Source: Rhodococcoides trifolii (GTDB taxonomy: Bacteria; Actinomycetota; Actinomycetes; Mycobacteriales; Mycobacteriaceae). Taken from it: a DNA stretch of 64,000 bases. The DNA is taken from positions 1,302,001 through 1,366,000 of the forward strand of contig NZ_BMCU01000001.1 of assembly GCF_014635345.1 (NCBI RefSeq), given 5' to 3'. Position numbers and translations under genes: made by a program. Under the pieces are notes generated by a model. It was not told the DNA's origin and did not search any database. It saw nothing but the letters and a program-made list of their open reading frames with translations. Below are positions 8,494-64,000 of the stretch, in pieces. The first letter of the stretch is position 1. Every line of letters starts with the position of its first letter.

Positions 8494-8513
8494 TGTGCCC
8501 CATTCGTACTGTT

Positions 8514-9737: not shown

Positions 9738-10058
9738 TTATTCGGAGTTCGTGAGCCTCTCGGCGTTCTGGGCCTCGGTCTCGGCGTAGGCGCGGCCAGC
9801 GGCGAGGAAGGTTTCGTGCATTCGGTCGGCGATGTCGATGTGCTGCTGGATCACCGATGCGAAAGACCGGTCGGAGCCGACTGCAAGCTGGAGGAACTTG
9901 TTGCCGAGCAGCTGGCCGGAGGGGAGGGTGCCGAAAGCGTCGAGCCGGACGAATCTGCTTGCCTGGTACTTGAGATCCCGAAGCTTGTCGCCATACTCCC
10001 TCCACGCATCAGCGCAGGTTTCCGCGGCGCCTGGCTCGATACTCAACGGTTCTGTCAT
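9738..10058 (-). CDS. type VII secretion-like helical small protein (EspC/WXG-like)
   Basis: A 106-residue all-helical protein starting at ATG 10058 with GAGGG 8 nt upstream. It has a central loop LPSGQLLGN between two long helices and a C-terminal YAETEAQN, matching the Y-x-x-x-D/E general type VII export signal. The helix-loop-helix layout and the position next to a DUF3558 lipoprotein are common for ESX-associated EspC-like proteins in Rhodococcus and Nocardia. No ESX machinery is in the window, so secretion would rely on a distant locus. It starts 16 nt after the lipoprotein stop, forming a two-gene operon. The family assignment is inferred from pattern, not from strong identity. Confidence 0.65.
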   Translation of the reverse strand: MTEPLSIEPGAAETCADAWREYGDKLRDLKYQASRFVRLDAFGTLPSGQLLGNKFLQLAVGSDRSFASVIQQHIDIADRMHETFLAAGRAYAETEAQNAERLTNSE

Positions 10059-10074
10059 GAATGCACCCTCAGTC

Positions 10075-43440: not shown

Positions 43441-46400
43441 ATGTTGATTCTGCATCGCGCCGAGCGTTCCGGAACGCTCGCCGATGCCCTGGGACAGGTG
43501 CTGTCGACGCCACTCGCAGATCCCTTCACTCGGGAGATCGTTTCCGTACCGGCCAAAGGCGTCGAGCGGTGGCTGAACCAACGGCTGTCGACGGTGCTGG
43601 GTACGTCGACCGGGGACGGCATTGCCGCCAACATCGACTTCCCGACGCCCACCCGACTGGTCGACACCGCGATATCCGCTGCGAGCGGCCTCGAGGCAGA
43701 CGACGATCCGTGGTCGCCGGGTCGGGTCCTGTGGGCCACGCTGGCGGTCATCGACGACAGTCTCAGCGAACCGTGGTGCGCGGTGTTGGCCAGGCACCTC
43801 GGGTACGACTCCTCGACGGGCTCGACCGAGGGGTACCGCGCGGGCCGACGGTGGGCCACCGCAGCACACGTCACCGATCTTCTCCGTGGCTACGCCGCTG
43901 CTCGCCCCCAGATGCTGATCGACTGGTCCGCCGGTGCGTACACGGACGGTGTGGGGGAGTCGTTGCCGTCCGACCTCCTGTGGCAGGCGGAGTTGTGGCA
44001 ACGACTGCGCACACGCATCGGTAGCCCGAGTCCGGCCGAACGCCTGGGAGAAGCGTGCGATGCGCTCCGTCGTCAGCCCGACCTGGTCGACTTCCCCGAG
44101 CGGCTGTCGCTGTTCGGTCCGACTCGCCTGAGTGCCGATCAACTGCAGGTGGTGTCCGCGCTGGCGACCGGTCGAGATGTGCACCTGTGGATTCCCCATC
44201 CCAGCCCCGCCATGTGGACGTCCCTGGCCACGAAGCCGACTCACCTCCGCCGATCCGCCGACAACACCGCTCTCGACGTCCCGCACCCGCTCTTGTCCTC
44301 GCTCGCGCGAGACGTCCGCGAACTTCAGGTGCGCCTCGGCTCGCTCGACGTCGAGGACGTTCATCACGAGGCTGTCGACGCGCCGGCCACGTTGCTGGGC
44401 CGCATTCAGGACGACATTCGCCTCGACCGCACGCCGACGACCAGCGCCACCCTGGACGGCACCGTTCAGGTGCATGCGTGCCACGGGGCGCCGCGCCAGG
44501 TCGAGGTGCTGCGAGAGTGCTTGCTGCACTTGTTCACCGAGGACCCGACGCTGGAACCGCGGGACGTGCTCGTCCTGTGTCCTGACGTCGAGACCTATGC
44601 GCCGCTCGTACGTGCAACCTTCGGGCAGGGTCTGTTGGGGCATCCCGGGCATCGGCTGCGCGTGCGACTCGCCGATCGCGGTCTGCGTCAGACCAATCCG
44701 CTGCTCGCCTCCGTTGCCACGTTCCTCGAACTGGCCGAGGGCCGTGTGACTGCCAGCCAGGTACTCGACCTCGCCACGAGTGCGCCCGTGCGCACCATGT
44801 TTCGCTTCACCGACGACGACCTCGAGCGGTTGCGGGAGTGGACGCATGCGTCGGGCGCGCGGTGGGGAATCGGATCGAGACAGCGCGAGGCCTACGGACT
44901 CGGCGACTTCCCGCAGAACACGTTCAACACCGCTGTCGATCGCATTCTGCTCGGCGTCGCGGCGGACGAGACCGACAACAGCTGGCTCGACCTCGCGCTC
45001 CCGCTCGACGACGTCGACGGCAACGACATCGATCTGGCCGGCCGGTTCGCCGAGATGGTCGATCGCCTCGCCGTGGTCCTGCGCGATCTGCAAGGGCCGC
45101 AGACGGTCTCGGACTGGATACGGGTGCTGCGCCGCTCGCTGGATCTACTGACCGACGTCCGCGTCGCGGACCAGTGGCAGGTGGCGGGGGCGCACCGAGA
45201 GCTGGCCGACGCCACCGAACACGGCGCGACGACCGAGCTGCGCCTCGCCGACGTGCGGGCCATGTTGGCGAGCCGGTTGGCGGGTCGCCCGACACGGGCC
45301 AATTTCCGCACCGGCGAACTGACGGTGTGCACCATGGTCCCCATGCGGTCGGTGCCGCACCGCGTGGTGGTCCTGCTCGGGTTGGACGACGACGTCTTCC
45401 CGCGCACGAGCAACACCGACGGAGACGACGTCCTGGCACGGAATCCGCTTGTCGGCGAACGAGATCTGCGCAGCGAGGATCGTCAGCTGCTTCTCGATGC
45501 CGTGATGTCCGCGAGCGATCGACTGCTGTTGTTCTACACGGGCGCCGATCCGGTATCGGGGGTGTCGAAGCCGCCCGCCATTCCGCTGAGCGAGTTGTTG
45601 GACGTGGTCACGCTGACCGCGGGGGCCGACCCTGTCCAGCGCCACCCGTTGCAGCCGTTCGACCCTCGCAACTTCGACGCGGTGACGCCATTCAGTTTCG
45701 ACACCGGTGCGCTGGCGGGTGCGAGAGCCAGTCGACGGCCTTCCGAGCCGATTCCGCCCTTCCTGCCGTCGCCGTTGCCCGAGATGCCGACCGGCGACGT
45801 GAACCTCTCCGACCTGGTTGCCTTCGTACAGAACCCGACGCAGGCATTCCTACGACAGCGGCTGCGATTCCGTGTCCCCGAAGTCGACGACGACATTGCC
45901 GACGCGCTCGATGTGGAGTTGGCGCCGCTCTCCCGGTGGAACATCGGTGACCGGATGCTGTCCGCGGTGCTCGGCGGCACCGAACTGTCCGAGTTCGCCG
46001 CCGCAGAATGGCGGCGCGGAACACTGCCCCCGTTCAAACAAGGTGCGCGGCAACTGAACTTCATCGAGAGCGGCGTCATGGCGCTGGCGGCGGCGTCGCG
46101 GTCGGTGCACGTGGGCGCTCCGACCAGCGTCGACGTCGCCGTCGACCTCGGTGACGGCCGCCGCATCACCGGAACGATCCCCGGCATTCACGGCTATGTG
46201 GTTGCGCGGACCCGCTATTCGACGCTCGGCCCCAAACACCGGTTGGAAGCGTGGGTTCATCTGCTGGCGTTGTCGGCGTATGCACCGGACGGCATCTGGG
46301 AGGCTGTCACCACCGGCAAGGGCAAACGCAGCATTCCTATCTCCCGGTCGACGATGTCCGCACCGGCGCACGCGGTCGACATTCTGCGGCAACTGGTCGA

Positions 46401-46719
46401 CCTCCGCGACCGAGGAATGGCGGCTCCGCTGCCGATGGCCACCGACTCGACTGCCGTGTACGCGGAACGCCGAGCGAGAGGGGTGAACGCCGATGCTGCC
46501 CTCACGGCAGCAAGTGAGACGTTCTCGGACAAGTTCGGCGACAACACCGATCGCAGCATCGTCTACGTCTACGGAAAGTCCCCAACGCTCGCGTCGCTCG
46601 GCGATGGGCCACCCGAGGGTGACGAAGCTTCGTGGAGCGACGATCCGACGCGATTCGGCGCCTTGGCCTTCCGCCTGTGGCGTCCACTTCTGGACCGGGA
46701 AACGCAGGGACAGCCATGA
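43441..46719 (+). CDS. recC: exodeoxyribonuclease V subunit RecC
   Basis: 1092 residues. RecC is the inactivated-helicase subunit of RecBCD that recognises Chi and holds the complex. Seen: N-terminal MLILHRAERSGTLADALGQVL, RecC-type KGVERWLNQRLS, and the long helicase-like region with motif remnants and the GDVNLSDLVAFVQNPTQAFLRQRL segment typical of RecC. It has no P-loop, as expected. Start ATG 43441. It overlaps recB by 4 nt (ATGA), so the three genes are one operon. Confidence 0.95.
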   Translation: MLILHRAERSGTLADALGQVLSTPLADPFTREIVSVPAKGVERWLNQRLSTVLGTSTGDGIAANIDFPTPTRLVDTAISAASGLEADDDPWSPGRVLWATLAVIDDSLSEPWCAVLARHLGYDSSTGSTEGYRAGRRWATAAHVTDLLRGYAAARPQMLIDWSAGAYTDGVGESLPSDLLWQAELWQRLRTRIGSPSPAERLGEACDALRRQPDLVDFPERLSLFGPTRLSADQLQVVSALATGRDVHLWIPHPSPAMWTSLATKPTHLRRSADNTALDVPHPLLSSLARDVRELQVRLGSLDVEDVHHEAVDAPATLLGRIQDDIRLDRTPTTSATLDGTVQVHACHGAPRQVEVLRECLLHLFTEDPTLEPRDVLVLCPDVETYAPLVRATFGQGLLGHPGHRLRVRLADRGLRQTNPLLASVATFLELAEGRVTASQVLDLATSAPVRTMFRFTDDDLERLREWTHASGARWGIGSRQREAYGLGDFPQNTFNTAVDRILLGVAADETDNSWLDLALPLDDVDGNDIDLAGRFAEMVDRLAVVLRDLQGPQTVSDWIRVLRRSLDLLTDVRVADQWQVAGAHRELADATEHGATTELRLADVRAMLASRLAGRPTRANFRTGELTVCTMVPMRSVPHRVVVLLGLDDDVFPRTSNTDGDDVLARNPLVGERDLRSEDRQLLLDAVMSASDRLLLFYTGADPVSGVSKPPAIPLSELLDVVTLTAGADPVQRHPLQPFDPRNFDAVTPFSFDTGALAGARASRRPSEPIPPFLPSPLPEMPTGDVNLSDLVAFVQNPTQAFLRQRLRFRVPEVDDDIADALDVELAPLSRWNIGDRMLSAVLGGTELSEFAAAEWRRGTLPPFKQGARQLNFIESGVMALAAASRSVHVGAPTSVDVAVDLGDGRRITGTIPGIHGYVVARTRYSTLGPKHRLEAWVHLLALSAYAPDGIWEAVTTGKGKRSIPISRSTMSAPAHAVDILRQLVDLRDRGMAAPLPMATDSTAVYAERRARGVNADAALTAASETFSDKFGDNTDRSIVYVYGKSPTLASLGDGPPEGDEASWSDDPTRFGALAFRLWRPLLDRETQGQP

Positions 46720-49700
46720 ACTTCGACCTCACCGCACCGCTCCCGACGGGCACGACAGTCCTGGAAGCGAGCGCCGGCACCGGCAAGACGTACGCCATCG
46801 TCGGTCTCGCGACCCGCTTCGTCGCCGAGGGCGTCGCCGACGTGTCCCAGCTTCTCCTCGTGACGTTCAGCAAAACGGCCACCCAGGAACTTCGCGATCG
46901 CACTCGCTCCCGGTTCGCCTCGGTGTCAACGGCATTGGCCGACATCGAGACTGCGCGCACGCACGCCGACGAAGTAGTGCGCTGCCTTGCCGACACCGAT
47001 CCGGCGGAGGTCGAGCTGCGGCGGCGACGCCTCACCAAAGCGCTGTCGGATTTCGACTCCGGCACCATCGCCACGACGCACAGCTTCTGCCAGCGGATGC
47101 TCGACGGGTTGGGCATCGGCGGTGAACGCGAGCCCGATTCGGTGTTCGTCGAGGACCTCGACGACCTCGTAGCGGAAGTCGCCGACGATCTGTACCTACG
47201 GACGTACTCCCGATCGGACGCCCCGGCCACCATCGAACCGAAGGAGGCTCGCTCGGTCGCGATGGCCGCCGTCGGGGACCGGCAGGCCATTCTGGTGCCG
47301 GAGGAGAACGAGGACTCCGTCGCGGGCCACCGAGTCATCTTTGCGCGGAAGGCGCGCGCCGAGGTCGAGAGGCGCAAAAGAGTTCTGGGCGTGCGTGATT
47401 ACGACGATCTACTCCAGATGCTGCGCGACGTGATCGTCGACCCGAACCACGGCGACGCGGCCTGCGCGCGAATCAGCAACCGGTTCCGTGTCGTGCTCGT
47501 CGACGAGTTCCAGGACACCGATCCGTTGCAGTGGGAGATCCTGGAACACGCGTTCCACCGCAGCAGCACCTTGGTCCTGGTCGGCGATCCGAAGCAGGCC
47601 ATCTACGCGTTCCGCGGCGCGGAGGTACTGAGTTATCTGGAGGCTTCTCGCATAGCGGACAGCCATCAAGAGCTCACCACCAATTGGCGCAGCGACAAGC
47701 CCCTGCTCGATGCCCTGGAGCACGTCTATCAAGGTGCCGCGCTGGGCCACGACGACATCGTGGTGCACCACGTGGACGCGAACCACCCCGAATCGCGCAT
47801 CCCGTCGGTGGTGCCGTTGCGAGTCCGCTACCTGCCGCGTACCGGAATGGGTCCGCTGAATCGGTCGGGTTTTCCCACGGTCGGGCCTGTACGCGAGCGG
47901 GTCGCGGAGGACGTGGCGGCGGACATCGTCGAATTACTCACCAGTGCAACCACAGTGGAGCTCCACGGAGAGTCTCGACCGGTAGCGCCGGGTGACGTCG
48001 CCGTGCTGCTGCGGACGTGGCGACAGGTGGGCCTCGTGCGCGACGCGTTGGATCGGGCCGGTGTGCCCTCGGTGCTCGCCGGCGGAACGTCGGTGTTCGC
48101 CACCGCCGGCGCCACCGACTGGCTGTGGGTACTGCAGGCTCTGGAACAACCGCACAGATCCGATCGGGTGCGGTTGGCCGCTCTGACACCGCTGCTCGGA
48201 TGGACTGCCGCCGATCTCGACTCCCGCGGCGACGACGCGGTCGCCGCGGTGAGCAACCAGCTTCGTAACCTTTCGATGTTGTTCGCGCAGGCGGGTTTTG
48301 CGGCCGTCTTCGAGCGCATGTCCTGGGAGGCGCACCTGGAAAGTCGGCTGCTCGCACTCGACGCGGGGGAGCGGCACCTGACCGACCTTCGGCACATCGC
48401 GCAGTTGCTGAACAAGGCCGCGGTGGAGGAGTCGTTCGGCCTCACGGCACTGACACGGTGGTTGACCGATCGCGTAAAAGATCCCTCGGGCGGCCCCGCA
48501 GACCGCAGCCGTCGGCTCGACAGTGACGCCGCCGCCGTTCAGGTCGCGACCATTCACGCCACCAAGGGCCTCGAGTTTCCGATCGTCTACGTCCCGTACG
48601 TGTGGGACGCGTTCTCCATGTACGAGCCTGCGTCACTCCTGCTGCACGAGGACGACGGGCGGCGCGTGCTGGACGTCGGCGGGTCCACCGGGCCGGGGTA
48701 CTCGGGCCGGAAGTCGATGCACGACACCGAGCAAGCGGGTGAGGAACTGCGGCTGTTCTACGTCGCCCTCACCCGCGCGCAGTGCGCCGTCACCATGTGG
48801 TGGGCCCCGAGCTGGGGAACGCGCGACTCACCTGCGCACCGGTTGCTGTTCGGCCGACTGCCGGGCGTGCGCACACCCGAGCCGAAACCGAAAGTCCCGG
48901 CCGACGACATCGTGCAGTCTCATCTCGAAAACTGGGCCGGTGACGGTCCGGACGGCGCGATCTCGGTCGAATTCGTCGACACCCGCGCAGTGCCCGAGGC
49001 GCACTGGGCGCCGACCGCGTCGCAGACGGGTTCCCTGGCGGCCGCCCGATTCGACCGCATCCTCGACATGGCGTGGCGCCGCACGTCGTACTCGGCCCTC
49101 ACGGCCTCCGCGCACGAGACCCCCGGTGTCGGCAGCGAGACCGAACGTGAGGAGAAGACCGACGAGCCCGACGGGGAGCCACCCGTCGAGGACGTGCTGA
49201 CAGGGATACCGTCGCCGATGAACGGAATGCCTGCCGGCGCGGCGTTCGGGACCCTGGTGCACGAGGTGCTCGAACACGTCGACACCGGAGTCGAGGATCT
49301 GAACGCAGAGGTGGTGCGGCGTTGCCGAGAAGCGGTGGCATCTCGCTTGGCCGACGTCGATCCGGAGGCTCTCGCCGCCGCGCTGATACCGGTGCTCCAC
49401 ACGCCGCTGGGCTTCGGAACACTGGCCGACATCGGGCCGGCGGATCGTCTGGCCGAGCTGGATTTCGAACTGCCGCTCGTCGGTGGCGACGATCCCGAGA
49501 CCGAGCTGGTCACCGTGAAGAACATTGCTGCGCTTGTTCGTTCGCATCTGCCGGCCGACGATGTGCTGGCCCCGTACGCCGACATGCTCGACACCCTCGC
49601 GGCCGTTCCCCTGCGCGGGTACCTGACCGGCAGCATCGACTCGGTGCTCCGCGTCGACGGAGAGCGGTTCGTGATCGTCGACTACAAGACCAACCGCATT

Positions 49701-49991
49701 TCGCGCGGTGACCTCACTGTGGCCCATTTCAGTCGTGAGCGGATGGCGGGGGAGATGATGCGGTCCCACTACCCGTTGCAGGCCTTGCTGTATTCGGTTG
49801 CACTGCATCGGTATCTGCGGTGGCGACTGCCCGGTTACCGCGCCGATCGACACCTGGGCGGGGCGCAGTATCACTTCGTGCGCGGGATGGTCGGCCCCGA
49901 GACTCCAGCTGGGTGCGGGGTATTCGACTGGAATCCGCCGGCTGCGCTCGTGTCGGAACTGTCCGACCTCCTCGCCGGGGTGGGCGCGTGA
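46716..49991 (+). CDS. recB: exodeoxyribonuclease V subunit RecB
   Basis: 1091 residues. Helicase motif I LEASAGTGKTYAIVG, motif II VLVDEFQDTDPLQW, RecB-type TIHATKGLEFPIVYVPYVWD, and a C-terminal nuclease with catalytic GSIDSVLR and DYKTNR. RecB unwinds 3'-5' and cuts DNA at double-strand breaks and Chi. The frame starts at ATG 46716 in the recC stop. Its 3' end overlaps recD by 4 nt (GTGA). Confidence 0.96.
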   Translation: MNFDLTAPLPTGTTVLEASAGTGKTYAIVGLATRFVAEGVADVSQLLLVTFSKTATQELRDRTRSRFASVSTALADIETARTHADEVVRCLADTDPAEVELRRRRLTKALSDFDSGTIATTHSFCQRMLDGLGIGGEREPDSVFVEDLDDLVAEVADDLYLRTYSRSDAPATIEPKEARSVAMAAVGDRQAILVPEENEDSVAGHRVIFARKARAEVERRKRVLGVRDYDDLLQMLRDVIVDPNHGDAACARISNRFRVVLVDEFQDTDPLQWEILEHAFHRSSTLVLVGDPKQAIYAFRGAEVLSYLEASRIADSHQELTTNWRSDKPLLDALEHVYQGAALGHDDIVVHHVDANHPESRIPSVVPLRVRYLPRTGMGPLNRSGFPTVGPVRERVAEDVAADIVELLTSATTVELHGESRPVAPGDVAVLLRTWRQVGLVRDALDRAGVPSVLAGGTSVFATAGATDWLWVLQALEQPHRSDRVRLAALTPLLGWTAADLDSRGDDAVAAVSNQLRNLSMLFAQAGFAAVFERMSWEAHLESRLLALDAGERHLTDLRHIAQLLNKAAVEESFGLTALTRWLTDRVKDPSGGPADRSRRLDSDAAAVQVATIHATKGLEFPIVYVPYVWDAFSMYEPASLLLHEDDGRRVLDVGGSTGPGYSGRKSMHDTEQAGEELRLFYVALTRAQCAVTMWWAPSWGTRDSPAHRLLFGRLPGVRTPEPKPKVPADDIVQSHLENWAGDGPDGAISVEFVDTRAVPEAHWAPTASQTGSLAAARFDRILDMAWRRTSYSALTASAHETPGVGSETEREEKTDEPDGEPPVEDVLTGIPSPMNGMPAGAAFGTLVHEVLEHVDTGVEDLNAEVVRRCREAVASRLADVDPEALAAALIPVLHTPLGFGTLADIGPADRLAELDFELPLVGGDDPETELVTVKNIAALVRSHLPADDVLAPYADMLDTLAAVPLRGYLTGSIDSVLRVDGERFVIVDYKTNRISRGDLTVAHFSRERMAGEMMRSHYPLQALLYSVALHRYLRWRLPGYRADRHLGGAQYHFVRGMVGPETPAGCGVFDWNPPAALVSELSDLLAGVGA

Positions 49992-51871
49992 TCACCGCGA
50001 CGGTGGCCCAGCGTGGCAAGGGCGTTCTGCGCGAGTTCAACGAGGCCGGGGTGCTCGCCGCGGCCGACGTCCACGTCGCGCTCCGGCTCGCGCACCTCGG
50101 CGGCGAGGCGTCGGAGGACGTGTTGTTGGCCACGGCGCTGGCGGTGCGCGCCGTCCGATCCGGCTCGGTGTGTCTGGATCTCAACAGGTTTCGGGACGTC
50201 ACGGTGGACGACGAGTCGGAGGTCGACGTCGACGCTCTGCCGTGGCCGGACGTTGCCGACGTCACGGCCGCGCTGCGCCGCAGCCCTCTGATCATCGGGG
50301 GCGAGCGGGGGCCACTGCGGCCGTTGCGCCTGGTGGAGACGGACGAGGGGCTGTTGCTGTACCTCGACCGATACTTTCTGCAGGAGCAGATGATTCGGCA
50401 GGTGCTCGACCAGCGGTCGGCGTCACATCCCGAGGTGGACGTCGATGCCTTGGCGTCACAACTGACGCTGCGGTTCGGAGATGCATCGGCGCCCGACCGT
50501 CAGCGCATCGCCGCGGCCCTCGCCGCGACCACCTGGACGACGGTGATCGCCGGCGGACCCGGCACCGGCAAGACGCACACCGTGGCACGCATTCTTGCGA
50601 TCCTCGTTGCGGCACAGGGGAAGTCGTTACGGATCGGACTTGCTGCGCCCACCGGGAAGGCTGCCGCACGCCTACAGGAGTCCGTAAGCGAGCAGTCCGC
50701 GGAACTGTCGCTGCCGCCCGACCTGTCGGCGATGACGCTGCACCGTTTACTCGGGTGGCAACCCGGCAGCAAATCCCGGTTCAAGTACAACGCCGGCAAT
50801 CGATTGCCGTACGACGTGGTGGTGGTCGACGAGACCTCGATGGTGTCACTGACGATGATGAGTCGGCTCCTCGAAGCGGTCCGTCCGGACACCCGTGTGC
50901 TGCTGGTGGGCGATCCCGACCAGTTGACGTCCGTCGACGCAGGGGCCGTGCTGGCCGATCTGGTGGCGCGGCCCGTGACCGGTTCTCTCACACCGGCTCT
51001 GACGTCCCTCGTCGGACACGACTTGGACGCCGCCGACGATCCCGACGAGAAGGCGCTGACCGCGGTCGAGCGCGACCGTTTGCGCAGCGGGGTGGTGCGA
51101 TTGAGCCGGGGCCGGCGGTTCGGTGGTGAGATCGCCGACCTGGCGGTGGCCGTGCGCGACGGCGACGCCGATGCCGTGCTCCGCCTGCTCGGCGGCGCGT
51201 CGTCGAACTTGTCGTTCCACGGTCCCGAGGATCTGGTCGGCGTCAGGAAGGATGTCGTCGACACCGCTGCCGTGGTGACCGAGGCCGCCCTGCAGGGTCG
51301 CGCGGTCGAGGCACTGGACGGACTCGAACGACATCGCCTGCTGTGTGCGCACCGAGACGGTCCGTACGGAGTGCAGCGGTGGGCCCGCACCGCGATGGAG
51401 TGGGTCGGTGAGGCGCAGGGAACGATTCTCGACCCCGCGCGCTGGTATCCGGGCCAGCCGTTGCTGGTGACGGCGAACGATCACGAAACGCGCATCTACA
51501 ACGGCGACACCGGCGTCATCGTGCAGGGAGAAGACGAACGAGCCGACGACCCGGCCGTCCCCGGGCCTGCCCGCCTGTGGGCCGCATTCCAGCGCGGCTC
51601 CACACCGTTCTTGCTGCACCCGAGTCAATTGTCGGCAATTCAGACGGTGTACGCCATGACAATTCACAGAAGCCAGGGCAGTCAGTACAACACCGTCACA
51701 GTGTTGCTACCGGCGGAAGCATCGTCGCTTCTCACTCGCGAGCTCCTGTACACGGCGATTACCCGCGCCCGGAAGCACGTTCGGGTGATCGGAACGGAGG
51801 CCGCTGTGCGTGCAGGGGTCGAGCGGCAGGTTCTGCGAGCCAGTGGCTTGAGGCGCACGTTGCGCGAGTGA
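49988..51871 (+). CDS. recD: exodeoxyribonuclease V subunit RecD
   Basis: 627 residues from GTG 49988, which overlaps the recB stop. The 5'-3' helicase of RecBCD: motif I GGPGTGKTHTVARIL, motif II VVVDETSMVS, GDPDQLTSV, and C-terminal TIHRSQGSQYNTVTVLLP and LLYTAITRARKHVRV. Length and order fit RecD1. With recC and recB it completes the nuclease-helicase; the operon ends here and 160 nt of gene-free DNA follow. Confidence 0.96.
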   Translation: MITATVAQRGKGVLREFNEAGVLAAADVHVALRLAHLGGEASEDVLLATALAVRAVRSGSVCLDLNRFRDVTVDDESEVDVDALPWPDVADVTAALRRSPLIIGGERGPLRPLRLVETDEGLLLYLDRYFLQEQMIRQVLDQRSASHPEVDVDALASQLTLRFGDASAPDRQRIAAALAATTWTTVIAGGPGTGKTHTVARILAILVAAQGKSLRIGLAAPTGKAAARLQESVSEQSAELSLPPDLSAMTLHRLLGWQPGSKSRFKYNAGNRLPYDVVVVDETSMVSLTMMSRLLEAVRPDTRVLLVGDPDQLTSVDAGAVLADLVARPVTGSLTPALTSLVGHDLDAADDPDEKALTAVERDRLRSGVVRLSRGRRFGGEIADLAVAVRDGDADAVLRLLGGASSNLSFHGPEDLVGVRKDVVDTAAVVTEAALQGRAVEALDGLERHRLLCAHRDGPYGVQRWARTAMEWVGEAQGTILDPARWYPGQPLLVTANDHETRIYNGDTGVIVQGEDERADDPAVPGPARLWAAFQRGSTPFLLHPSQLSAIQTVYAMTIHRSQGSQYNTVTVLLPAEASSLLTRELLYTAITRARKHVRVIGTEAAVRAGVERQVLRASGLRRTLRE

Positions 51872-55907: not shown

Positions 55908-57305
55908 ATGAATCGCTCGCACGCACTGGCCGTGTCTGCACTCGGCACAATGCTGACGCTCGTCGCGTTCACCGCACCACTGGCCACGTTGAACGCCACG
56001 GCGTCCACCCTCGGCGCCGACACCGCGGGCAGGACGTGGATCCTGAGCTCGATGGCCATCGGCCTCGGTGCCGCGTTGCTCTCGAGCGGCACGATCTCCG
56101 ACGACTTCGGCCGCCGCCGCGCGTTCGTGATCGGCTGCGCGGTCCTCGCGATCGGGTCCCTCGCCTGCGCTCTGGCACCCACCACGCAGGTGTTCGTCGG
56201 CGCCCGCGTCGTGCAGGGTCTCGGTGGCGCTGCCATCGTCGCCGCCAGCCTCGGAATCATCGCGCATGCGTTCCCTCCCGGTCCGGAACGCGCGGCGGCA
56301 TCGGGGGTGTGGGGTGCCAGCGTGGGCGGCGGTATCGCACTGGGGCCGCTGGTCTCGGCGACTCTCGATCGGTTCGCGAACTGGCGGGACGCGTACTGGT
56401 TGCTCGTCGTCGCTGTCGTGGTTCTCGCCGTCGCGGCAATGCGCGTCGTCGAGGAATCGCGGGCGGACAACCGACGTGGGCTGGACCTGACAGGAACGAT
56501 CCTGCTTGCCGCCGGCGTCAGTACGTTGCTGGCGACGCTCGTCGAAGGACGTCAGGGGTGGGTGCAGGTACACGTCGTCGTCCTCGCAGTCGCAGCCGTG
56601 GTTCTGCTCGGATTGTTCGTGGTGGTCGAATTACGAAGCGACACAGCGATGCTCGATCTCGGCCTGTTCCGTCAGCCGCCGTTCGTGGCCGCGACGGTCG
56701 CGGCTCTGGCGACCGGCGCCGGGATCATTGCGCTCATGTCCTACATGGGTGCGTTCCTCGGCGGGGCACTCGGCATCTCGGCCCTGGGAGGAGCGTTTCT
56801 ACTCTTCGCGTGGTCGGGGTCGAGTGTCGTCACCGCCCTGTTGGCGCGACGCATCCCGCCGCGCTTCGGCGGTCGGCCGCAGCTGGGTGTCGGGTTGATC
56901 GGCGTGGCCGTCGGCCAGTTGGCGCTGGTGGGCATCTCCGCCGACTCGACGTGGGTGCGTTTCCTGCCCGGACTTCTCGTCGCCGGTGTTGCCAGCGGTG
57001 TGCTGAACGCGGCACTCGGACGTGAGGCCGTCGCCAGCGTTCCGGCCGGACGCGGCGGTCTCGGCAGCGGCGCAAACAACACCGCTCGATACGTGGGGTC
57101 GGCCATCGGGGTCACGGTCGTGGCCGTCATCGCGGCACGGCCGGGGTCCGGGCCGGCCGTGGCGGCGTCTCTCGCCACCGGGTGGAATCACGCAGCCGTG
57201 GTCACAGCGGTCATCTCACTGGTCGGCGCGGCGGCGGTGTTCTGGGCTCACCGAGCGACGCGTTCGAGCACTTCGATTCCGTCGACGTCGGCAGTCAACA
57301 CATAA
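55908..57305 (+). CDS. MFS drug efflux transporter
   Basis: 465 residues with 12-14 transmembrane segments and major-facilitator motifs: loop 2-3 DDFGRRRAFVIG (motif A) and GARVVQGLGGAAIVAASLGIIAHAFPP (motif C region, drug/H+ antiporter DHA2-like). It exports a toxic compound. ATG 55908, directly under the presumed HxlR operator. Its last 58 nt overlap the end of the DUF2079 gene on the other strand. Confidence 0.92.
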   Translation: MNRSHALAVSALGTMLTLVAFTAPLATLNATASTLGADTAGRTWILSSMAIGLGAALLSSGTISDDFGRRRAFVIGCAVLAIGSLACALAPTTQVFVGARVVQGLGGAAIVAASLGIIAHAFPPGPERAAASGVWGASVGGGIALGPLVSATLDRFANWRDAYWLLVVAVVVLAVAAMRVVEESRADNRRGLDLTGTILLAAGVSTLLATLVEGRQGWVQVHVVVLAVAAVVLLGLFVVVELRSDTAMLDLGLFRQPPFVAATVAALATGAGIIALMSYMGAFLGGALGISALGGAFLLFAWSGSSVVTALLARRIPPRFGGRPQLGVGLIGVAVGQLALVGISADSTWVRFLPGLLVAGVASGVLNAALGREAVASVPAGRGGLGSGANNTARYVGSAIGVTVVAVIAARPGSGPAVAASLATGWNHAAVVTAVISLVGAAAVFWAHRATRSSTSIPSTSAVNT

Positions 57306-58678
57306 CCGTCGGCCAGGGCGTCGCTGATCGCCTTGTCGTCGCCGACCCGGTCGAGGGGCCAGCCGGGCGGGTGGGCTCGGTTGACCACTATCCAATCGGG
57401 TGTCGAGGTATCGGCCGGTCGCTGCGGAAACACGGTCACGTCATGGGTCGAGACGAATTGCGGCACCAGGTTGTTGGACGCGGCGATGGAGTCGCCGGCG
57501 GGGATGCTCGACGCGATGTCGGCGGCCGTGACGGCCTGCGGATCGACGCGCCAACCGTCGGCGTTCGCCAGGCGCGAGAGCGGGGTGAACGGGAGCGACC
57601 CGATGGCCACGACTGCGACCGCACCGAAGATCACCCGCTGAGCGCGACGCGACAGGTGCATATCTCGTCGACCGCGGATCACGGCGTCGATCAGCGCCGC
57701 GAAGAGAATTGGCATCAGGATCGCGTTGTAGTGGTAGATCGGCACCCAGTAGTTCGAGTTGCCGCTCAGGAAGCGCCACGCGACGGTCGGGGCGGCGATC
57801 AGGGTGAGCGGTGACCGCAGTGCCGCAAATCCGGTGATGGCGAGAAGAAGAAGGATCGTCGCCGCCCGAGAGTCGCCGGCCACCAGTCCATGCGCGGTGT
57901 CGGCGATGCCGGAGCCCAGCGGAGGGAGGTTCGACCCCTGGTTGTATGCGTCGTCGCTGCTCAGGGCCGGAATGATCACCTTGACAGCCAGGGCAGTCCA
58001 CCCGAGCCCCCACACAGCCGTTGCGATTCCCCAGAAGCGAGTACGTCCGGATGTCCAGAAGGCCACCAGTGCGCCGATCACGGCGACGGTGAGGCCCATG
58101 TCCTCCTTGACGAACACGAGAGGCAGCGCCCAGAGCATGGCCGTCCGCCACCGGCCCTGCCCGAGCGCGACCACCGAGAACGCCAGGATGGGGACAGCGA
58201 ACGCGATTTCGTGAAAGTCGAAGTTCAGCGCCGACTGCAGACCGAACGAGAGGCCGTAGCCGAGCGCCACGATCAGAGCGATGCGCTTACCGAAGGCGTT
58301 CTGCGCCCAACGGGTCAGGGGGACGACGCCGACCGCGAACAGAACGGCTTGGGCGATCAGCAGCGTGTCCGGTGACGGGAACGCCCGGTAGAACGGCGCG
58401 AGCAGGGCGGTGATGGGCGAGAAGTGGTCACCGAGCGTGGTGTAGCCGGTGCCGAGCAGGTTGGACACCGGTGCCCGCAGATGTGCGTATCCCGACACTT
58501 CCTGAACGAAGATGCCCAAATCGAAGCCCGACGTCCGAAGTTGGCGCTGGCCCATGAGCGACAGAGCCGAGTACAGCGCGGCAAAGATGCCGAAGGCCGA
58601 CAGCGGCAGCGCCCACCCGCGATGACGAGCCGGCGCGGGAGGCGACGTCACCTCGGGGGAGTTGCGTAAAGCTGTCAC
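57248..58678 (-). CDS. DUF2079 polytopic membrane protein
   Basis: 476 residues, about ten transmembrane helices. DUF2079 signs: FDLGIFVQEVSGYAHLRAPVSNLLGTGYTTLGDHFSPI near the N-terminus with conserved DxG and H, and LIVALGYGLSFGLQSALNFDFHE later. The fold resembles glycosyltransferase/ArnT-like membrane enzymes. GTG 58678 is the start, 43 nt after jetC, in the place jetD normally occupies. It may be part of the same transcript, but no role in defence is known for the family. Confidence 0.85.
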   Translation of the reverse strand: MTALRNSPEVTSPPAPARHRGWALPLSAFGIFAALYSALSLMGQRQLRTSGFDLGIFVQEVSGYAHLRAPVSNLLGTGYTTLGDHFSPITALLAPFYRAFPSPDTLLIAQAVLFAVGVVPLTRWAQNAFGKRIALIVALGYGLSFGLQSALNFDFHEIAFAVPILAFSVVALGQGRWRTAMLWALPLVFVKEDMGLTVAVIGALVAFWTSGRTRFWGIATAVWGLGWTALAVKVIIPALSSDDAYNQGSNLPPLGSGIADTAHGLVAGDSRAATILLLLAITGFAALRSPLTLIAAPTVAWRFLSGNSNYWVPIYHYNAILMPILFAALIDAVIRGRRDMHLSRRAQRVIFGAVAVVAIGSLPFTPLSRLANADGWRVDPQAVTAADIASSIPAGDSIAASNNLVPQFVSTHDVTVFPQRPADTSTPDWIVVNRAHPPGWPLDRVGDDKAISDALADGYVLTADVDGIEVLERVAR

Positions 58679-58721
58679 GGGAAGTCAGTTCTACTCGTCG
58701 AAAATGAGATGGGGCTGTGAA

Positions 58722-61700
58722 TTACCCGAGCGCATGCAGATGTTTGTGCTTGCCGTCCCAGTGCACTCGCGTGGTGATGACGGCACTGTCGCCGAGTCGT
58801 CGGATCTCGTAGATGTCCAGTGCAGGTACCTCGGGAACCGTTCCCCAGAGCGCGTGGCCGGTCATCACGAAGTCGATGTCCAACCGAACGAGGAGGCCCA
58901 TCAGCTCGCCGATCGTGCTCTCGTCGATCTTGGCGAACGCGTCGTCGAGCAGCACGAGCCGCAGGGCGTTGTCGGCGTCGGGAAGGCTCGACAGGTACCC
59001 GTCCGCCGCCGCGAAGAGAGCCGCGTACGACACGAAGCGCGTCTCGCCCTGCGAGATCTTGGCGCGTTTGGAGATGCGGCGCTGCTGATCGGGCTCGGGA
59101 CCGAGAATGGTGACCTCGACGGCGTGCCACGTTCGGTAGTCGAGCGCCGTGGCCAGGTGGGCGGCGTACCCGGCGCTGGGATCCTCGGCGTGCAACTGCT
59201 CGACGCGGCCCCGCAGAAGTCCGACGAGCTCGTCGGAGTTCGACGAGTGCTCGGCTGACAGCAACTCGAGAATGCGCGCCAACTCGGGCTCGTCCTTCTC
59301 GAGGTGCCACCCCATCCGCACACCGATTCCGTGCGAGGTCCGGCTGGTACTCAGACTCGAATTCATCGCCTCGATCAACTCGCGCGCCTGCTCGATCCGC
59401 CTACGCAGTTCGTCGGACACCCCGCCGAGCACGAAGCCGGTGAACACGTCTCGCTCGCGCTGGCCGAGTGCTTGCTTGCCCTCGGTGACGCGACGGTTCA
59501 GATAGTCCAGCACCTCGACGGGATGGTGACTGTCACCCGCTCCGTCGATGTGCACCACGTACACACCGTCCTCGACGCGTTCGGAGACGTCGAGTTGCCC
59601 GGAGGAGTCGCGCTGGAAGCGCTGCAGGGCAGTGATGAGCTCGTTGACGGTCACCGCGTCGTGCGTGCCGACGGCGCCCAAGGCCGAGGCGACGATCTGG
59701 CGGATGTGTTCGGTGTCGTCCGGATGCGCGACCACGGGGATGGATGCGTCAGTCACCGCAGGTGCCAGACCCGGAAGGCGTACGCGCGCGTTGTATTCGG
59801 TTACCCGCTCGATGAGCTCTGCGGCGCGCGCCGACTCTTTCTCGGCCGCCACCGCCACGTCCGTCCGTGCCGCCGCGAGCTGATTCTGCAGATCGTTGAC
59901 CGCACGCGACGCGTCGTTCAGGTTGTCCTCGGTGACCCGATGCTGCTCCAGCGTCCGATTCAGTTCGATGCTCAGCTCCTGAAGTGGAACCTCCAGTGCA
60001 TCGTGGGCCGAGGCAAGCTTGGACGCGTGATCGTGCCACTGCAACCGCCGATCCTCCGCCGCGCTCTCGGCGTGCACACGATCGTTGGTCGCGTATCCGA
60101 ACTCGGTCGCCGCGGACGTGGCTGCCGCGGTGCGCCGAACAGTGGTACGGCAGGCGGCACCGAACCCGGTGGCCGACAGAGACACTCGCCGGCACGCCGC
60201 GTCGACGGCGGCCAGGTCGGCCACACTCACCGGCAGGTCCATACCGTGGCACGCGAGACGGTGATTCTCGAATTCGGCACTCCACGAGTCGCGTTCACGG
60301 CCGGCGTCCCGCTCGGCGTCGCGGGCGCGGCGAGTACTCGTCAGGGCGAACTCGGCCAGGGCGGACGCCGTCGCACGGGCCGCGACCAGCGCGGTGGACG
60401 ACGGCGCCGAGTCGAGATGCGCGTCCAGCGTGGACCGGTCGCGCTCGATCTCGGCACGCCTGTCTCCGTACTCACCGAGCGTGGCGAGTTCGACAGCCCA
60501 CTGCTCCCGAACCGAGCGGGCGGCCCGAGCGGGAAGCGCGTCGAGGTCGGGTCCGGACACCGACTCACCGGCGAAGGCCTCGATGTCGGACAGTACGGCG
60601 TCGACCTCGGGGCGGGCGGCAATATCGGGCAGCACCGATTGCGTCGTCGGGTTCGAGAACCATTGCCGCCAGGCGTGATTCGTGGTGATCGCAAGCTCGT
60701 CACGCGCCTCGGCCGCATCGGTGGCGCGTGCGTCGTCACGATCGGCTTCCGCGCGAGCATGTTCGGCGTGCAGTTCGAGTTCCCGAATGCGCCCGCGTTC
60801 GACCTCGAGGCGGGTAGCTTCCTGCAGCCTCCGCGTCGCCTGCTGATGACGATGTTCGGCGGCCTCGGCGGCCCTCTCGGCAGCGGTCGCTGCGGGCCCG
60901 AGATCAGCTGGGACGGTGGTCGCCTCGGTGAAGGTCGGACGGACGATCGAGGACGGGAAGCCGTCCAGTGAATCGGTGACGGTTCCCTGCTCGGGCTCGC
61001 GGACCCGATCGACGATGTGGATCTCGGTCGGTAGGTCGTCTGTTCCGAGTCCGGCAGAACTCGAATCCTGCAGCACCGCCGTGAGAGTCGTAGCCGCATC
61101 TCGCGCCGCGGTGCGCACGTCGTCGTAGCGGCCGATGAGTCGGTCCGCGGCGTTCACCTCGGCGATGCGGGCACGCCGAGCGAAGCCGAGCGACTGCTCT
61201 GCCGTGTTGCGCAGCGCCGCCACCGCCACGTCTCGCTGGTGCAGATCGTCGGCCGACTTGAACAGGTCGTGTTCGCGGAAGGCGTCGAGCGCACGCACCA
61301 GTTCGGCTCGCTCGTCCGTCAGATCCTGGCGCAGTGCGGTCGCTGCGCCGAGTTCCGACGCCAACCGCTCCGCGATCGCGACGTGCGTGCCCTCGATTCC
61401 CCGCGCGGTGGAGACGGCGTCGACGCCCTCGCGCACACGGACGGCGGTGTCGTGCAGAATCGTTGCGGCGTAGTCGGAATAGGTGCTGCGGAACCGCTCG
61501 ACGTTCTCGAGGGTGGCTTCGAGGCGTTGCTGCGACTGACGAGTTTCGGTGAGGCCGTCGAGTTGTTCGCCCGCCGCTCCCAAGGTCTGCTCGCTCAGCG
61601 GCGGGAGCGCGTCCGACAAAATCTGCGGAAGCTTGCCCTCGTCGATGCGGTTACCGACGTCGGGCGAGCGCAAGGTGTGCAGCAACTGCATCAGCCCGGC

Positions 61701-62264
61701 GAATCGATCCTTGCCGGACTCGCCCTGCAGCCCGAACACCTTGGTGCGGACGGCTTCCCGATGCTCCTCCGGAGTCTTGGACAGGTTGCCGGGGCCGACA
61801 GCGGCGGTCAGGTCGTCCCGCGACAGTGCCTCTCGGTTGTCGGCGATCAACCGAAGATCGTGCCCGACGCGTCGGTGGGTGGTGAAGAACAGCACTTCGC
61901 TGCGGTTCGCCGTGGTGCTGTACTTGACGTGTGCGCCGACGGTGAGATGCCCGCGGTCGTTCTCGAGCTCCATCCACAGATATCCCAGCCGGTTGTTCTG
62001 TCCGCGCGCGCCGGTTCGCATGAGCTCGTCGAGGTTGACCTTGTTCGACCCGGTCGCATCCATCCGTCGACGGTCACCGTCGAGGAGGTAGGGAAGCAGC
62101 ATCTCCAGAGCGCGTGATTTACCGGATCCGTTGGCGCCACGCAGGATCAGCCGACCACCCGAGATGGTGAACTCGGTGTCGAGGTAGTGCCACACGTTCA
62201 CGACGCCGGCGCGGGTGAGTCGCCAGCGATGGTCGTAATGTTTGGCACCTAGTGGTTCGGTCAC
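58722..62264 (-). CDS. jetC: JetC (TIGR02680), SMC-like ATPase of type II Wadjet
   Basis: 1180 residues from GTG 62264, overlapping jetB by 4 nt. Walker A GANGSGKS at 43-50, long coiled-coil arms between roughly 220 and 950 rich in Ala/Arg/Glu, then signature ISQGETRFVSYAALF and Walker B LRLVLLDDAFAKID from 1101. This is the SMC motor of the JetABCD (EptABCD in mycobacteria) condensin-like machine that extrudes plasmid DNA loops and triggers cleavage of small circles. Expected next in the operon is jetD (TIGR02679, TOPRIM nuclease), which is missing. Confidence 0.93.
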   Translation of the reverse strand: MTEPLGAKHYDHRWRLTRAGVVNVWHYLDTEFTISGGRLILRGANGSGKSRALEMLLPYLLDGDRRRMDATGSNKVNLDELMRTGARGQNNRLGYLWMELENDRGHLTVGAHVKYSTTANRSEVLFFTTHRRVGHDLRLIADNREALSRDDLTAAVGPGNLSKTPEEHREAVRTKVFGLQGESGKDRFAGLMQLLHTLRSPDVGNRIDEGKLPQILSDALPPLSEQTLGAAGEQLDGLTETRQSQQRLEATLENVERFRSTYSDYAATILHDTAVRVREGVDAVSTARGIEGTHVAIAERLASELGAATALRQDLTDERAELVRALDAFREHDLFKSADDLHQRDVAVAALRNTAEQSLGFARRARIAEVNAADRLIGRYDDVRTAARDAATTLTAVLQDSSSAGLGTDDLPTEIHIVDRVREPEQGTVTDSLDGFPSSIVRPTFTEATTVPADLGPAATAAERAAEAAEHRHQQATRRLQEATRLEVERGRIRELELHAEHARAEADRDDARATDAAEARDELAITTNHAWRQWFSNPTTQSVLPDIAARPEVDAVLSDIEAFAGESVSGPDLDALPARAARSVREQWAVELATLGEYGDRRAEIERDRSTLDAHLDSAPSSTALVAARATASALAEFALTSTRRARDAERDAGRERDSWSAEFENHRLACHGMDLPVSVADLAAVDAACRRVSLSATGFGAACRTTVRRTAAATSAATEFGYATNDRVHAESAAEDRRLQWHDHASKLASAHDALEVPLQELSIELNRTLEQHRVTEDNLNDASRAVNDLQNQLAAARTDVAVAAEKESARAAELIERVTEYNARVRLPGLAPAVTDASIPVVAHPDDTEHIRQIVASALGAVGTHDAVTVNELITALQRFQRDSSGQLDVSERVEDGVYVVHIDGAGDSHHPVEVLDYLNRRVTEGKQALGQRERDVFTGFVLGGVSDELRRRIEQARELIEAMNSSLSTSRTSHGIGVRMGWHLEKDEPELARILELLSAEHSSNSDELVGLLRGRVEQLHAEDPSAGYAAHLATALDYRTWHAVEVTILGPEPDQQRRISKRAKISQGETRFVSYAALFAAADGYLSSLPDADNALRLVLLDDAFAKIDESTIGELMGLLVRLDIDFVMTGHALWGTVPEVPALDIYEIRRLGDSAVITTRVHWDGKHKHLHALG

Positions 62265-63394
62265 GTGGGTGATCCCGTCGTGGGTCGGTAGCGGGCGGCG
62301 TGGGCGTGGAGGGCAAGTCCGTTCTCGCGGGACTCGGCCATGCGGAAGTCGTGGAGGAGTGCCACCACGTCGGTGCGCAGCGCGACAACCGAATCGACGT
62401 ACTCCTGCTTCCACGACCGCTCGTTCTCCGCGGTCAGTTCGGACAGGATCTGATCGACCAGCGGCCACGGCGCGAGCAGTTCGGTTCGCGCCTGCGCAGC
62501 CGGAAGCCGTTCCACCAGCTCCCCGACCAGCAGCAGGGTGGCCTGCTTGAGGCTTCCGCTGCCGGGGAACTCGATGTCGCTGAGGCGGGCATCGGAGTCG
62601 TACGCGAGGACTCCCTCGGCGCGGACCTCCAACGTGAGACCGAAGTACTCGTCCAGTTGCCGTGTCAGGTCGGTCTTCTCGCGCGCGAGAACGTCCTGTT
62701 CACTGTCGCTGAGGTCTCGGCGCAAGCTGATCGGGTCCTCCACGAGACGTCGACGCAGACGCTTCCTCGGGTCGTCGGTCGGGACGGCGAGAACGTGCGC
62801 GAGCTCGGTGTCGGGTCCCAACGGGTGGGTCAGCAAGTGGGGCAGCAGGGGACGCGCGACGGAGAGCAGGGCGTCGTTGCTCGCGTTGTCGCCCCACGCC
62901 GTCACAGTTCCGTCGGTCTCGCCGAGCAGGCCCCACTCGACGAGGACCTGCAGGGCGGCGACGAGTCGTCGACGATCGGTGATGTTCTCCGACAGGGCAA
63001 TTCCGCGTGCTGCGGCGTCCTCGCGGACTTGGGCGACGAGCGTCGACAGCAGTACCTGATCACCCATTCCGGGCGCCAGAAGGGCCGCGCCGGTGAGCGC
63101 CAGCAGCGCGTACGACGATGCGCCGAGCGGAACACCGTTGGGCCGGCGCAGCGCTCGCGTCGGTGCCGTCGGTTCGAGCGGGGTCTTGACCAGCCGCGCG
63201 AACGTCGACTCGACGATCAGTGTGTATCCGAGTTCCGAGGCGAAGGTCGACTTGAGGGCCGTCGCGTGTTTGCGGATGAGCGACAACAACTCCGGGTCAC
63301 GCGCCGCGGTGATGATGGGCCGCTGCAACAACTCCCGGCTGGCCTCCTGCCTACCCGCGGCGTCCTGCGAAAGGGTGCCCAGAGATTCGGTCAC
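62261..63394 (-). CDS. jetB: JetB (TIGR02678), kite-like subunit of type II Wadjet
   Basis: 377 residues from GTG 63394, which overlaps the jetA stop by 4 nt. Matches the TIGR02678 family by SRELLQRPIITAARDPELLSLIRKHATALKSTFASELGYTLIVESTFARL and the late RFRMAESRENG-like DFRMAESRENGLALHAHAARY. JetB is the winged-helix kleisin-partner that couples JetA to the SMC subunit. The frame ends within the jetC start. GC and codon use resemble the neighbouring genes. Confidence 0.93.
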   Translation of the reverse strand: MTESLGTLSQDAAGRQEASRELLQRPIITAARDPELLSLIRKHATALKSTFASELGYTLIVESTFARLVKTPLEPTAPTRALRRPNGVPLGASSYALLALTGAALLAPGMGDQVLLSTLVAQVREDAAARGIALSENITDRRRLVAALQVLVEWGLLGETDGTVTAWGDNASNDALLSVARPLLPHLLTHPLGPDTELAHVLAVPTDDPRKRLRRRLVEDPISLRRDLSDSEQDVLAREKTDLTRQLDEYFGLTLEVRAEGVLAYDSDARLSDIEFPGSGSLKQATLLLVGELVERLPAAQARTELLAPWPLVDQILSELTAENERSWKQEYVDSVVALRTDVVALLHDFRMAESRENGLALHAHAARYRPTTGSPT

Positions 63395-64000
63395 CGCGCG
63401 CTCCGGCGGGCGTCGTCCGCATGCCGACTGTTCAGCGGCTCCACCGCGAGCACCAGATCGTGCACGGTGAGTGTCCCGTCGGGTGACTGCACGACCGTGT
63501 CCGCGCCGGTTGTCGCCGTCAGACGCAGCCCGAGATCGTCGTCGCTCCACTGGCCGCCCAGCCCCGGATCGTCGGCTGCAGCCAGCAGGCGGCCCAGCTG
63601 TTCGAGCAGCAGTACCCTTGCGGCACTGGACAATCGAGCGCCATCGAGCGGTCCGAGGGTGGCGAGTTCGGCGGCAGCGTCACGGGTGCGGAGGGCGTCG
63701 GAACGGGCGATCTCGTCCACTCGCCGCCGGTCGGCGGTCGTGTCCGGCACCCGCGAGACACGGCCGCGCGAGACGCGGTCTCCGCGCTCGCGCAGCGACA
63801 CCGGGACGGTGATGGGATCGGCGGTCCACCACGATGTTCCGGGGCCCACACGCGGGTCGGGTTCGTCGGGGCCGAGCAGCAGGTGTCGGGTGGGCTGGGC
63901 GCCGAACGTGGCGGCGAAGAGACGCTCGGCATCCTCGTCGGAGGACGAGTCGAACCACGACGCGAGCCGCAGCAGGTCCGCTCGCCGGGAGAAGCCGGAG
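63391..64000 (-). CDS. jetA: JetA (TIGR02677), kleisin-like subunit of type II Wadjet, 5' part beyond window
   Basis: The last ~202 residues of the TIGR02677 protein are visible: FSRRADLLRLASWFDSSSDEDAERLFAATFG, RHLLLGPDEPDPRVGPGTSWWTADPITVPVSLRERG, then DLVLAVEPL near the end. JetA is the kleisin that clamps the SMC dimer. The gene continues beyond position 64000. Overlap with jetB by 4 nt (GTGA) shows the standard jetA-jetB-jetC order. Confidence 0.9.
   Translation of the reverse strand, partial: SGFSRRADLLRLASWFDSSSDEDAERLFAATFGAQPTRHLLLGPDEPDPRVGPGTSWWTADPITVPVSLRERGDRVSRGRVSRVPDTTADRRRVDEIARSDALRTRDAAAELATLGPLDGARLSSAARVLLLEQLGRLLAAADDPGLGGQWSDDDLGLRLTATTGADTVVQSPDGTLTVHDLVLAVEPLNSRHADDARRSAR

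What the first reader, a model, noticed from the sequence alone, without database searches (positions are those of the whole stretch)
57248..64000. Type II Wadjet operon without jetD; a DUF2079 membrane gene sits in its place
jetA, jetB and jetC (TIGR02677, TIGR02678, TIGR02680) overlap in the usual order on the minus strand. In known type II Wadjet/Ept loci the TOPRIM nuclease jetD (TIGR02679) follows jetC. Here 43 nt after the jetC stop a GTG begins a DUF2079 membrane protein, and no TOPRIM gene appears anywhere downstream in the window. Either jetD has moved upstream of jetA, the system has lost its nuclease and become a loop extruder without cutting, or the membrane protein replaced it.
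Basis: partly seen in the sequence, partly recalled or inferred. Interest (0 to 1): 0.72.

Follow-up and report, generated by a model that had tools for sequence, protein, structure and literature searches.

The report
Wadjet SMC operons without their nuclease
This bacterium carries two sets of a DNA-looping plasmid-defence machine that have both lost their DNA-cutting part, as many relatives have too, while the looping part is kept; in the set found here the looping protein has also lost its central joining domain.

Summary
Observation confirmed: jetC (58722-62264), jetB (62261-63394) and jetA (63391-64875, running past the window) overlap by 4 nt. No jetD was found beside them or elsewhere in the genome. 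DUF2079 starts 43 nt after jetC but is a bystander: 32 of 37 genus genomes have it, and in 13 opened relatives it lies near the RelA-like or ABC2 gene without jet genes. The genome holds a second jetABC, at the genus-wide mshC site, also without jetD. Of 401 family genomes 159 have jetA; 56 of these have JetD, 103 do not. In two sister comparisons jetD is missing just after the jetC stop. Nuclease-free jetABC stays under purifying selection. I conclude that type II Wadjet has repeatedly lost its nuclease here and that JetABC is kept as a non-cutting SMC motor; the motor role is inferred. The window copy is odder: its JetC lacks the hinge, alone among 104 aligned JetCs, although its ATPase motifs are intact. 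Without another way to close the ring it is probably inactive or decaying; a working hinge-less extruder is the bold alternative. Loss of JetD is already proposed in print for MksBEF, so this is a new variant of a known kind.

The parts
58722..62264 (-). jetC (SMC subunit), 1180 aa, GTG start overlapping jetB by 4 nt; Walker A, signature and Walker B motifs present; central hinge missing
   Evidence: TIGR02680 538 bits; PDLC00553 807 bits; motifs and hinge count; start
60443..60509 (-). place of the missing hinge in jetC (about residues 586-608), where relatives carry some 190 more residues; reads ...REQWAVELATL-GEYGD-RRAEIERDR...
   Evidence: alignment with 18 relatives of the subfamily and 4 others; 6 of 137 hinge columns filled against 124 or more in 103 other JetCs; solved JetC 9qe0 matched in the two head regions only
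62261..63394 (-). jetB (KITE subunit), 377 aa
   Evidence: TIGR02678 161 bits; PDLC00543 326 bits; start
63391..64000 (-). 3' part of jetA (kleisin subunit); the gene runs on to window-equivalent 64875, 494 aa in all
   Evidence: TIGR02677 partial match; complete gene PF09660 E 4e-107 and PDLC00541 556 bits
57248..58678 (-). DUF2079 membrane protein gene, a bystander and not part of the system
   Evidence: PF09852; in 32 of 37 genus genomes; lies near RelA or ABC2 genes without jet genes in 13 of 13 opened relatives

Best explanation
The window holds a second type II jetABC operon of a subfamily that elsewhere has jetD. Its nearest relatives, in genus g22, have jetABCD, so jetD was most likely lost. 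Shown: no JetD was found in the genome, DUF2079 is a bystander, and across this family jetD is missing from many jetABC operons that stay intact and under purifying selection, with recent loss visible in two sister comparisons. Inferred: without JetD, JetABC works as a non-cutting SMC motor that loops chromosomal or plasmid DNA, in the manner of Pseudomonas MksBEF. In this genome that role would belong to the copy at the mshC site. The window copy, whose JetC lacks its hinge, can close a ring only if its arms or kleisin bridge dimerise some other way, so it is most likely impaired or decaying.
For: JetD absent by three models with positive controls. 58 loci without JetD give no tblastn hit to 15 JetD proteins at E 1e-3, while both control loci hit. 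159 jetA+ family genomes: 56 with a strong JetD match, 103 without; none of the 56 lacks jetA. jetD missing in place in sister comparisons G255/G145 and G036/G203. At least 8 changes of jetD state on a 74-tip tree of chosen loci. JetC dN/dS 0.04-0.12 in 11 jetD-less pairs of the main locus. The window copy groups with jetABCD of g22, 100% support. Hinge missing only in the window copy. Sites without jet genes in relatives. [quoted passage not shown]
Against: No functional data. JetC dN/dS is somewhat higher in jetD-less pairs (0.04-0.12) than in five jetD-bearing pairs of genus g1 (0.05-0.08), so constraint may be partly relaxed; in the window's subfamily it is higher in both states (0.13-0.20 in five jetD-less pairs, 0.29 in the one jetD-bearing pair; JetA up to 0.48). 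In C. glutamicum MksBEFG has no effect on chromosome folding (PMC7083940), so a chromosomal role need not follow. The N-terminal part of JetB, where JetD contacts JetABC in type I, is not visibly decayed in jetD-less lineages. In the wider order a JetD or JetD-like gene can lie two or three genes away from jetC, so absence beside jetC alone is not proof of loss.
Confidence: 0.6

Rival explanations
1. Both operons are disarmed remnants: jetD goes first because the nuclease is costly or toxic, and jetABC decays slowly afterwards. The hinge-less window copy is an advanced stage.
For: Hinge missing in the window copy; degenerate Walker A in the G068 copy L110 (GPTGVGRT) with a short jetA call; higher dN/dS in the window's subfamily.
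Against: Walker A, signature and Walker B motifs are intact in 40 of 40 main-type jetD-less JetCs, and jetABC there is under clear purifying selection; jetC is in 37 of 37 genus genomes; g9 (14 genomes) and g21 (6) have jetA and no strong JetD match in any.
Confidence: 0.25
2. JetABC works with another effector in trans, a nuclease or other toxin-like enzyme, so defence still occurs.
For: The JetB N-terminal region is kept; a DUF559 endonuclease-like gene lies between jetC and mshC in L048 and L051, and a gene with a weak DUF559 match in L050 (E 8e-4); in one genome of the wider order (G638) a JetD N-terminal domain is fused to a TIR domain near jetABC.
Against: No shared gene in jetD's place at the jetD-less loci inspected; the DUF559 genes are on the opposite strand and seen in 3 of 8 g1 loci; the JetD model that finds the TIR fusion (PDLC00557) finds nothing in this genome at E 1e-3.
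Confidence: 0.12
3. The DUF2079 membrane protein is the new fourth component, for example anchoring JetABC to the membrane.
For: Same strand, 43 nt after jetC.
Against: The gene exists in 31 other genus genomes, none with this jetA subfamily, and sits there near RelA or ABC2 genes in 13 of 13 opened; not beside jetC at the 18 other family loci of the subfamily inspected.
Confidence: 0.04
4. The window JetC is a natural hinge-less short-arm SMC that still extrudes DNA, closing its ring through arm contacts or the kleisin cross-bridge.
For: Frame and ATPase motifs intact, GC3 of 0.81 like its neighbours; the join reads as a possible helical hairpin around GEYGD (by eye); an engineered hinge-less type I JetC core still supports cleavage (PMC12647877 section 10); hinge-less SMC homologues are reported from ocean metagenomes (PMC12153180).
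Against: The engineered core needed an added disulfide at the elbow, and reduction abolished activity; alone among 104 JetCs; no CxxC hook.
Confidence: 0.15

Closest known systems
Type II Wadjet / EptABCD (JetABCD with TIGR02677, 02678, 02680, 02679)
   Same: jetA, jetB and jetC families, order and 4-nt overlaps; ATPase motifs of JetC
   Different: No jetD found here or elsewhere in the genome; the window JetC also lacks the hinge
MksBEF of Pseudomonas aeruginosa, a Wadjet-like condensin without nuclease
   Same: Kleisin, KITE and SMC subunits without nuclease; [quoted passage not shown]
   Different: Here the genes are of type II; no chromosome role shown here; here the missing jetD is seen in many genomes and as recent loss at one site. 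Kinship to P. aeruginosa MksB was not tested
Engineered ecJET(core) without elbow-to-hinge segment (PMC12647877, section 10 read)
   Same: JetC without hinge
   Different: Made in the laboratory in type I, with a stabilising disulfide and with JetD; here natural, type II and without JetD
Hinge-less SMC homologues of ocean metagenomes (PMC12153180, passages read)
   Same: SMC-like protein with head and coiled coil but no hinge, and no CxxC hook
   Different: Those form a clade of relatives of canonical SMC; this is a single JetC of a Wadjet operon

Membership tests
Type II Wadjet (JetABCD) | jetA, jetB and jetC of TIGR02677, 02678 and 02680 in overlapping order | tested here: met
   (TIGR02677 was run on the part of jetA in the window only; the whole gene by Pfam and PADLOC)
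Type II Wadjet (JetABCD) | jetD nuclease (TIGR02679) in the operon or genome | tested here: not met
   positive controls
Type II Wadjet (JetABCD) | JetC ATPase motifs intact | tested here: met
   GANGSGKS, SQGET, LLDDAF, the last as in g22 members that have jetD
Type II Wadjet (JetABCD) | restriction of small circular plasmids | not testable with these tools
   needs a bench test
SMC protein (head, coiled coil, hinge) | central hinge domain in the window JetC | tested here: not met
   that the missing central stretch is the hinge is inferred from its place
SMC protein (head, coiled coil, hinge) | central hinge in JetC of the second operon (G000:C2) | tested here: met
MksBEF-like condensin without nuclease | kleisin, KITE and SMC subunits without nuclease gene | tested here: met
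MksBEF-like condensin without nuclease | role in chromosome organisation or segregation | not testable with these tools
   needs deletion and chromosome contact maps
MksBEF-like condensin without nuclease | close sequence kinship to P. aeruginosa MksB | not tested
   no comparison made

The most novel reading that the evidence does not exclude
Type II Wadjet has been repeatedly turned into a nuclease-free core SMC complex in this actinobacterial family. The window copy goes a step further: a natural hinge-less, nuclease-free JetABC that still moves or holds DNA, which would show that neither cutting nor the hinge is needed for its cellular role.
Probability: 0.15. Interest if true: 0.78.

Novelty: new variant of a known kind. 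Interest (0 to 1): 0.52.

Why it matters
Published models treat JetABC as the sensor and JetD as the executor, and suggest that condensins such as MksBEF came from Wadjet by loss of the nuclease. Here such loss can be seen at one chromosomal site, in sister genomes that keep jetABC. That makes it directly testable what JetABC does without a nuclease, and whether defence systems become housekeeping SMC complexes. It also warns that tools which call Wadjet from jetABC may overcount active plasmid restriction in actinobacteria (not tested here). A natural hinge-less JetC, if real, bears on which parts of an SMC are needed for DNA looping.

Tried and rejected
DUF2079 as jetD replacement: rejected. 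jetD upstream of jetA: rejected; a RelA/SpoT-domain gene lies there. RelA as a partner: not found beside jetABC at the other family loci of this subfamily and present near DUF2079 without jet genes in 8 of 13 relatives. The ABC2 pair as a partner: a similar pair (50% and 28% identity) lies upstream of jetA in one of those loci, L106, and in no other. A shared replacement gene in the jetD slot: none seen. Decay of JetD contact sites: column entropies are not informative, because 18 of the 22 jetD-bearing main loci are from one genus; the JetB N-terminus shows no decay. Related loci in genome contigs: one weak metagenome hit only; viral contigs: none; plasmids: 28 records, none covering 80% of the query.
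Full report
What is there. On the minus strand lie jetA (63391-64875, the last 875 nt outside the window), jetB (62261-63394) and jetC (58722-62264), each overlapping the next by 4 nt. They match TIGR02677 (a partial match, on the part in the window), TIGR02678 and TIGR02680 and the PADLOC type II models. After 43 nt comes DUF2079 (57248-58678). Upstream of jetA, 66 nt away, is a RelA/SpoT-domain gene, then an ABC2 transporter pair.

No jetD. TIGR02679 has no match in the genome. PDLC00557, which scores 3e-107 on a jetD of the genus, gives only a chance match (E 0.039). PF09664, the JetD C-terminal domain, gives none. The last search covered 30 genomes: 3 of 3 with jetD rang over the cut-off, and 0 of 27 without; 12 of those 27 gave matches under the cut-off with E of 0.04 or more.

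DUF2079 is a bystander. It is in 32 of 37 genus genomes, in three of them in two pieces, whereas the strong form of this jetA subfamily is, within the genus, in this genome alone. I opened 13 of the 31 others; distances are from tblastn ends. In 5 the DUF2079 gene sits 160-247 nt from the ABC2 genes. In 4 it sits 188-212 nt from the RelA gene, and in 4 more RelA lies 0.5-2.2 kb away, with genes between that I did not name. None showed a jet gene there (matches over 45% identity were printed), and the one jetC place of each of those genomes lies elsewhere. So jetABC stands between RelA and DUF2079 only here.

A second jetABC. All 37 genus genomes have a jetC over the cut-off. In the 12 whose site I opened it lies next to mshC (the name is borne out by TIGR03447, 716 bits, for this genome). 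In 29 of 37 a jetD is found; in 8, including this genome, it is not. In these 8 the three genes are full length.

How general it is. In 401 family genomes, drawn evenly from a larger group, 161 match the JetA model, 159 of them strongly. JetD by PDLC00557 is found strongly in 56, every one of which has jetA; 9 more genomes have weak matches (E 9e-8 to 3e-4), one of them (G240) with jetA, counted here as without JetD. So 103 of 159 have JetA without a strong JetD match: 25 of 43 in g22, 8 of 37 in g1, 24 of 26 in g23, 16 of 18 in g27, 14 of 14 in g9 and 16 of 20 in six other genera that lack it in part or whole (g21, g13, g15, g25, g28, g17 together 16 of 17; g8 and g30 0 of 4). The count is by genome, so a genome with two jetABC sets and one jetD counts as having it, and it rests on one JetD model. 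For 58 loci without JetD that I had opened (3 of them stretches of this genome), 15 JetD proteins found nothing at E 1e-3, while 2 control loci hit.

The wider order. The window's jetA subfamily is in 51 of 348 order genomes. Of 52 listed places I opened 20. jetD directly follows jetC in 13. One (L213) is in pieces and has a jetD. In L201 a shortened JetD lies 2.4 kb beyond jetC, past other genes. In L196 (G638) a JetD N-terminal domain joined to a TIR domain lies 1.75 kb beyond. In four (L195, L204, L205, L214) I saw none, nor in 14-18 kb downstream of these and of three more genomes (G531, G653, G677). Those genomes were not searched whole for JetD.

Loss, not gain. In G255 the jetC end, its stop and 10 more nt match G145, and the match resumes beyond the place where G145 has jetD. 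G036 against G203 shows the same with 2 nt. A third, more distant comparison (G023, G110) is less clean at the jetC end. JetD of g1, and of the two g23 genomes that have it, form their own branches; the deep order is not resolved and does not match the JetABC tree at all nodes. A JetABC tree of 74 loci (29 with jetD; chosen by me, not at random) needs at least 8 changes of state, gain or loss.

Selection. For 11 jetD-less pairs at the main locus dN/dS is 0.01-0.19 (jetA), 0.02-0.24 (jetB) and 0.04-0.12 (jetC). For 5 jetD-bearing pairs of g1 it is 0.04-0.06, 0.08-0.21 and 0.05-0.08. For 5 jetD-less pairs of the window's subfamily JetC is 0.13-0.20 and JetA reaches 0.48; the one jetD-bearing pair has JetC 0.29. 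Some pairs are so close (dS 0.01) that their ratio is rough. Constraint is clear but perhaps a little weaker without jetD.

The hinge. The window JetC has 1180 aa; the other 103 JetCs have 1332-1558. The alignment puts the missing part, about 190 aa, between residues 586 and 608. The solved JetC 9qe0 matches a relative (L092) in three stretches, the two head halves and a central one (chain residues 605-783), but matches the window JetC in the head halves only. Of 107 JetC loci I left out three with pieces under 1000 aa (L095, L173, L213); of the 104 kept, 103 fill at least 124 of 137 hinge columns and the window copy fills 6. That this central stretch is the hinge is inferred from its place between the arms. 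An assembly error cannot be excluded without reads.

Kinship of the window copy. With jetABC of 42 loci, the window copy groups with three g22 operons that have jetD (100% support), next to 15 g27 loci without jetD, inside groups that have jetD. So an ancestor most likely had jetD, and losses in the window line and in g27 are most simply separate. At the g27 loci the jet genes lie among shared neighbours and no jetD follows jetC.

Mechanism. Published work, seen as passages: JetABC extrudes plasmid DNA and then activates JetD (PMC12647877); MksBEF of P. [quoted passage not shown] C. glutamicum MksBEFG acts on plasmids, not on chromosome folding (PMC7083940); MksG binds the kleisin (PMC10123090). 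From these I infer that the jetD-less JetABC is a non-cutting motor. For the window copy, section 10 of PMC12647877 (read whole) says a hinge-less JetC core works only when its arms are cross-linked, so the window complex is probably impaired unless its ring closes otherwise.

Print. Searches listed nothing that by title or abstract start treats type II jetABC without jetD in this family or a hinge-less JetC; two searches showed only 15 of 1,124 and 12 of 2,467 papers. Only an open library was searched, no preprints. I saw passages of 8 papers. Wadjet is reported in 42% of actinobacteria, and 73% of Rhodococcus genomes have Wadjet together with certain other systems (PMC10482375); the term JetD does not occur in that text.

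Noticed in passing
L196:9028-10134 (same gene in L215:1828-2934; genome G638): A 368-aa protein near jetABC joins a JetD N-terminal domain (PDLC00557, residues 4-233) to a TIR domain (ThsB-like, residues 225-349) in place of the nuclease domain: a possible effector swap in a Wadjet relative. Not seen within 17 kb downstream of jetC in three sister genomes (G474, G531, G653).
   Followed up: partly
L219:13440-14459, L220:3120-4187, L221:4640-5659 (G582, G588, G665): JetD shortened by about 90 model positions where the nuclease domain begins; directly after jetC in G588, two or three genes away in the other two.
   Followed up: no
G000:C2, about 1140795-1147743 (L046:6796-13744): Second jetABC without jetD; between its jetC and mshC lies a 122-aa glyoxalase-like gene (PF19581).
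   Followed up: yes
window-equivalent 64942-65895 (L013:11943-12896): RelA/SpoT-domain gene upstream of jetA that matches PADLOC candidate PDC-S33 over residues 91-179 (54 bits); found near DUF2079 in 8 of 13 opened relatives.
   Followed up: partly
L048:11135-11953, L050:11419-12060, L051:5542-6537: Genes between jetC and mshC on the opposite strand in three jetD-less genomes; those of L048 and L051 match DUF559 (PF04480), an endonuclease-like family; the L050 one has only a weak DUF559 match (E 8e-4).
   Followed up: partly
L110 (G068), jetC 6224-10393: Copy of the window's jetABC subfamily with a degenerate Walker A (GPTGVGRT) and a short jetA call, so probably decaying.
   Followed up: no
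L106:3884-5616 (G242): An ABC transporter pair resembling the window's (50% and 28% identity) lies upstream of jetA in this one g27 locus.
   Followed up: no
43441-51871: recC, recB and recD genes (RecBCD nuclease) on the plus strand; present near DUF2079 in many of the opened relatives too.
   Followed up: no
L118 (G077): A more distant jetABC type, also without jetD beside it, in genus g13.
   Followed up: no
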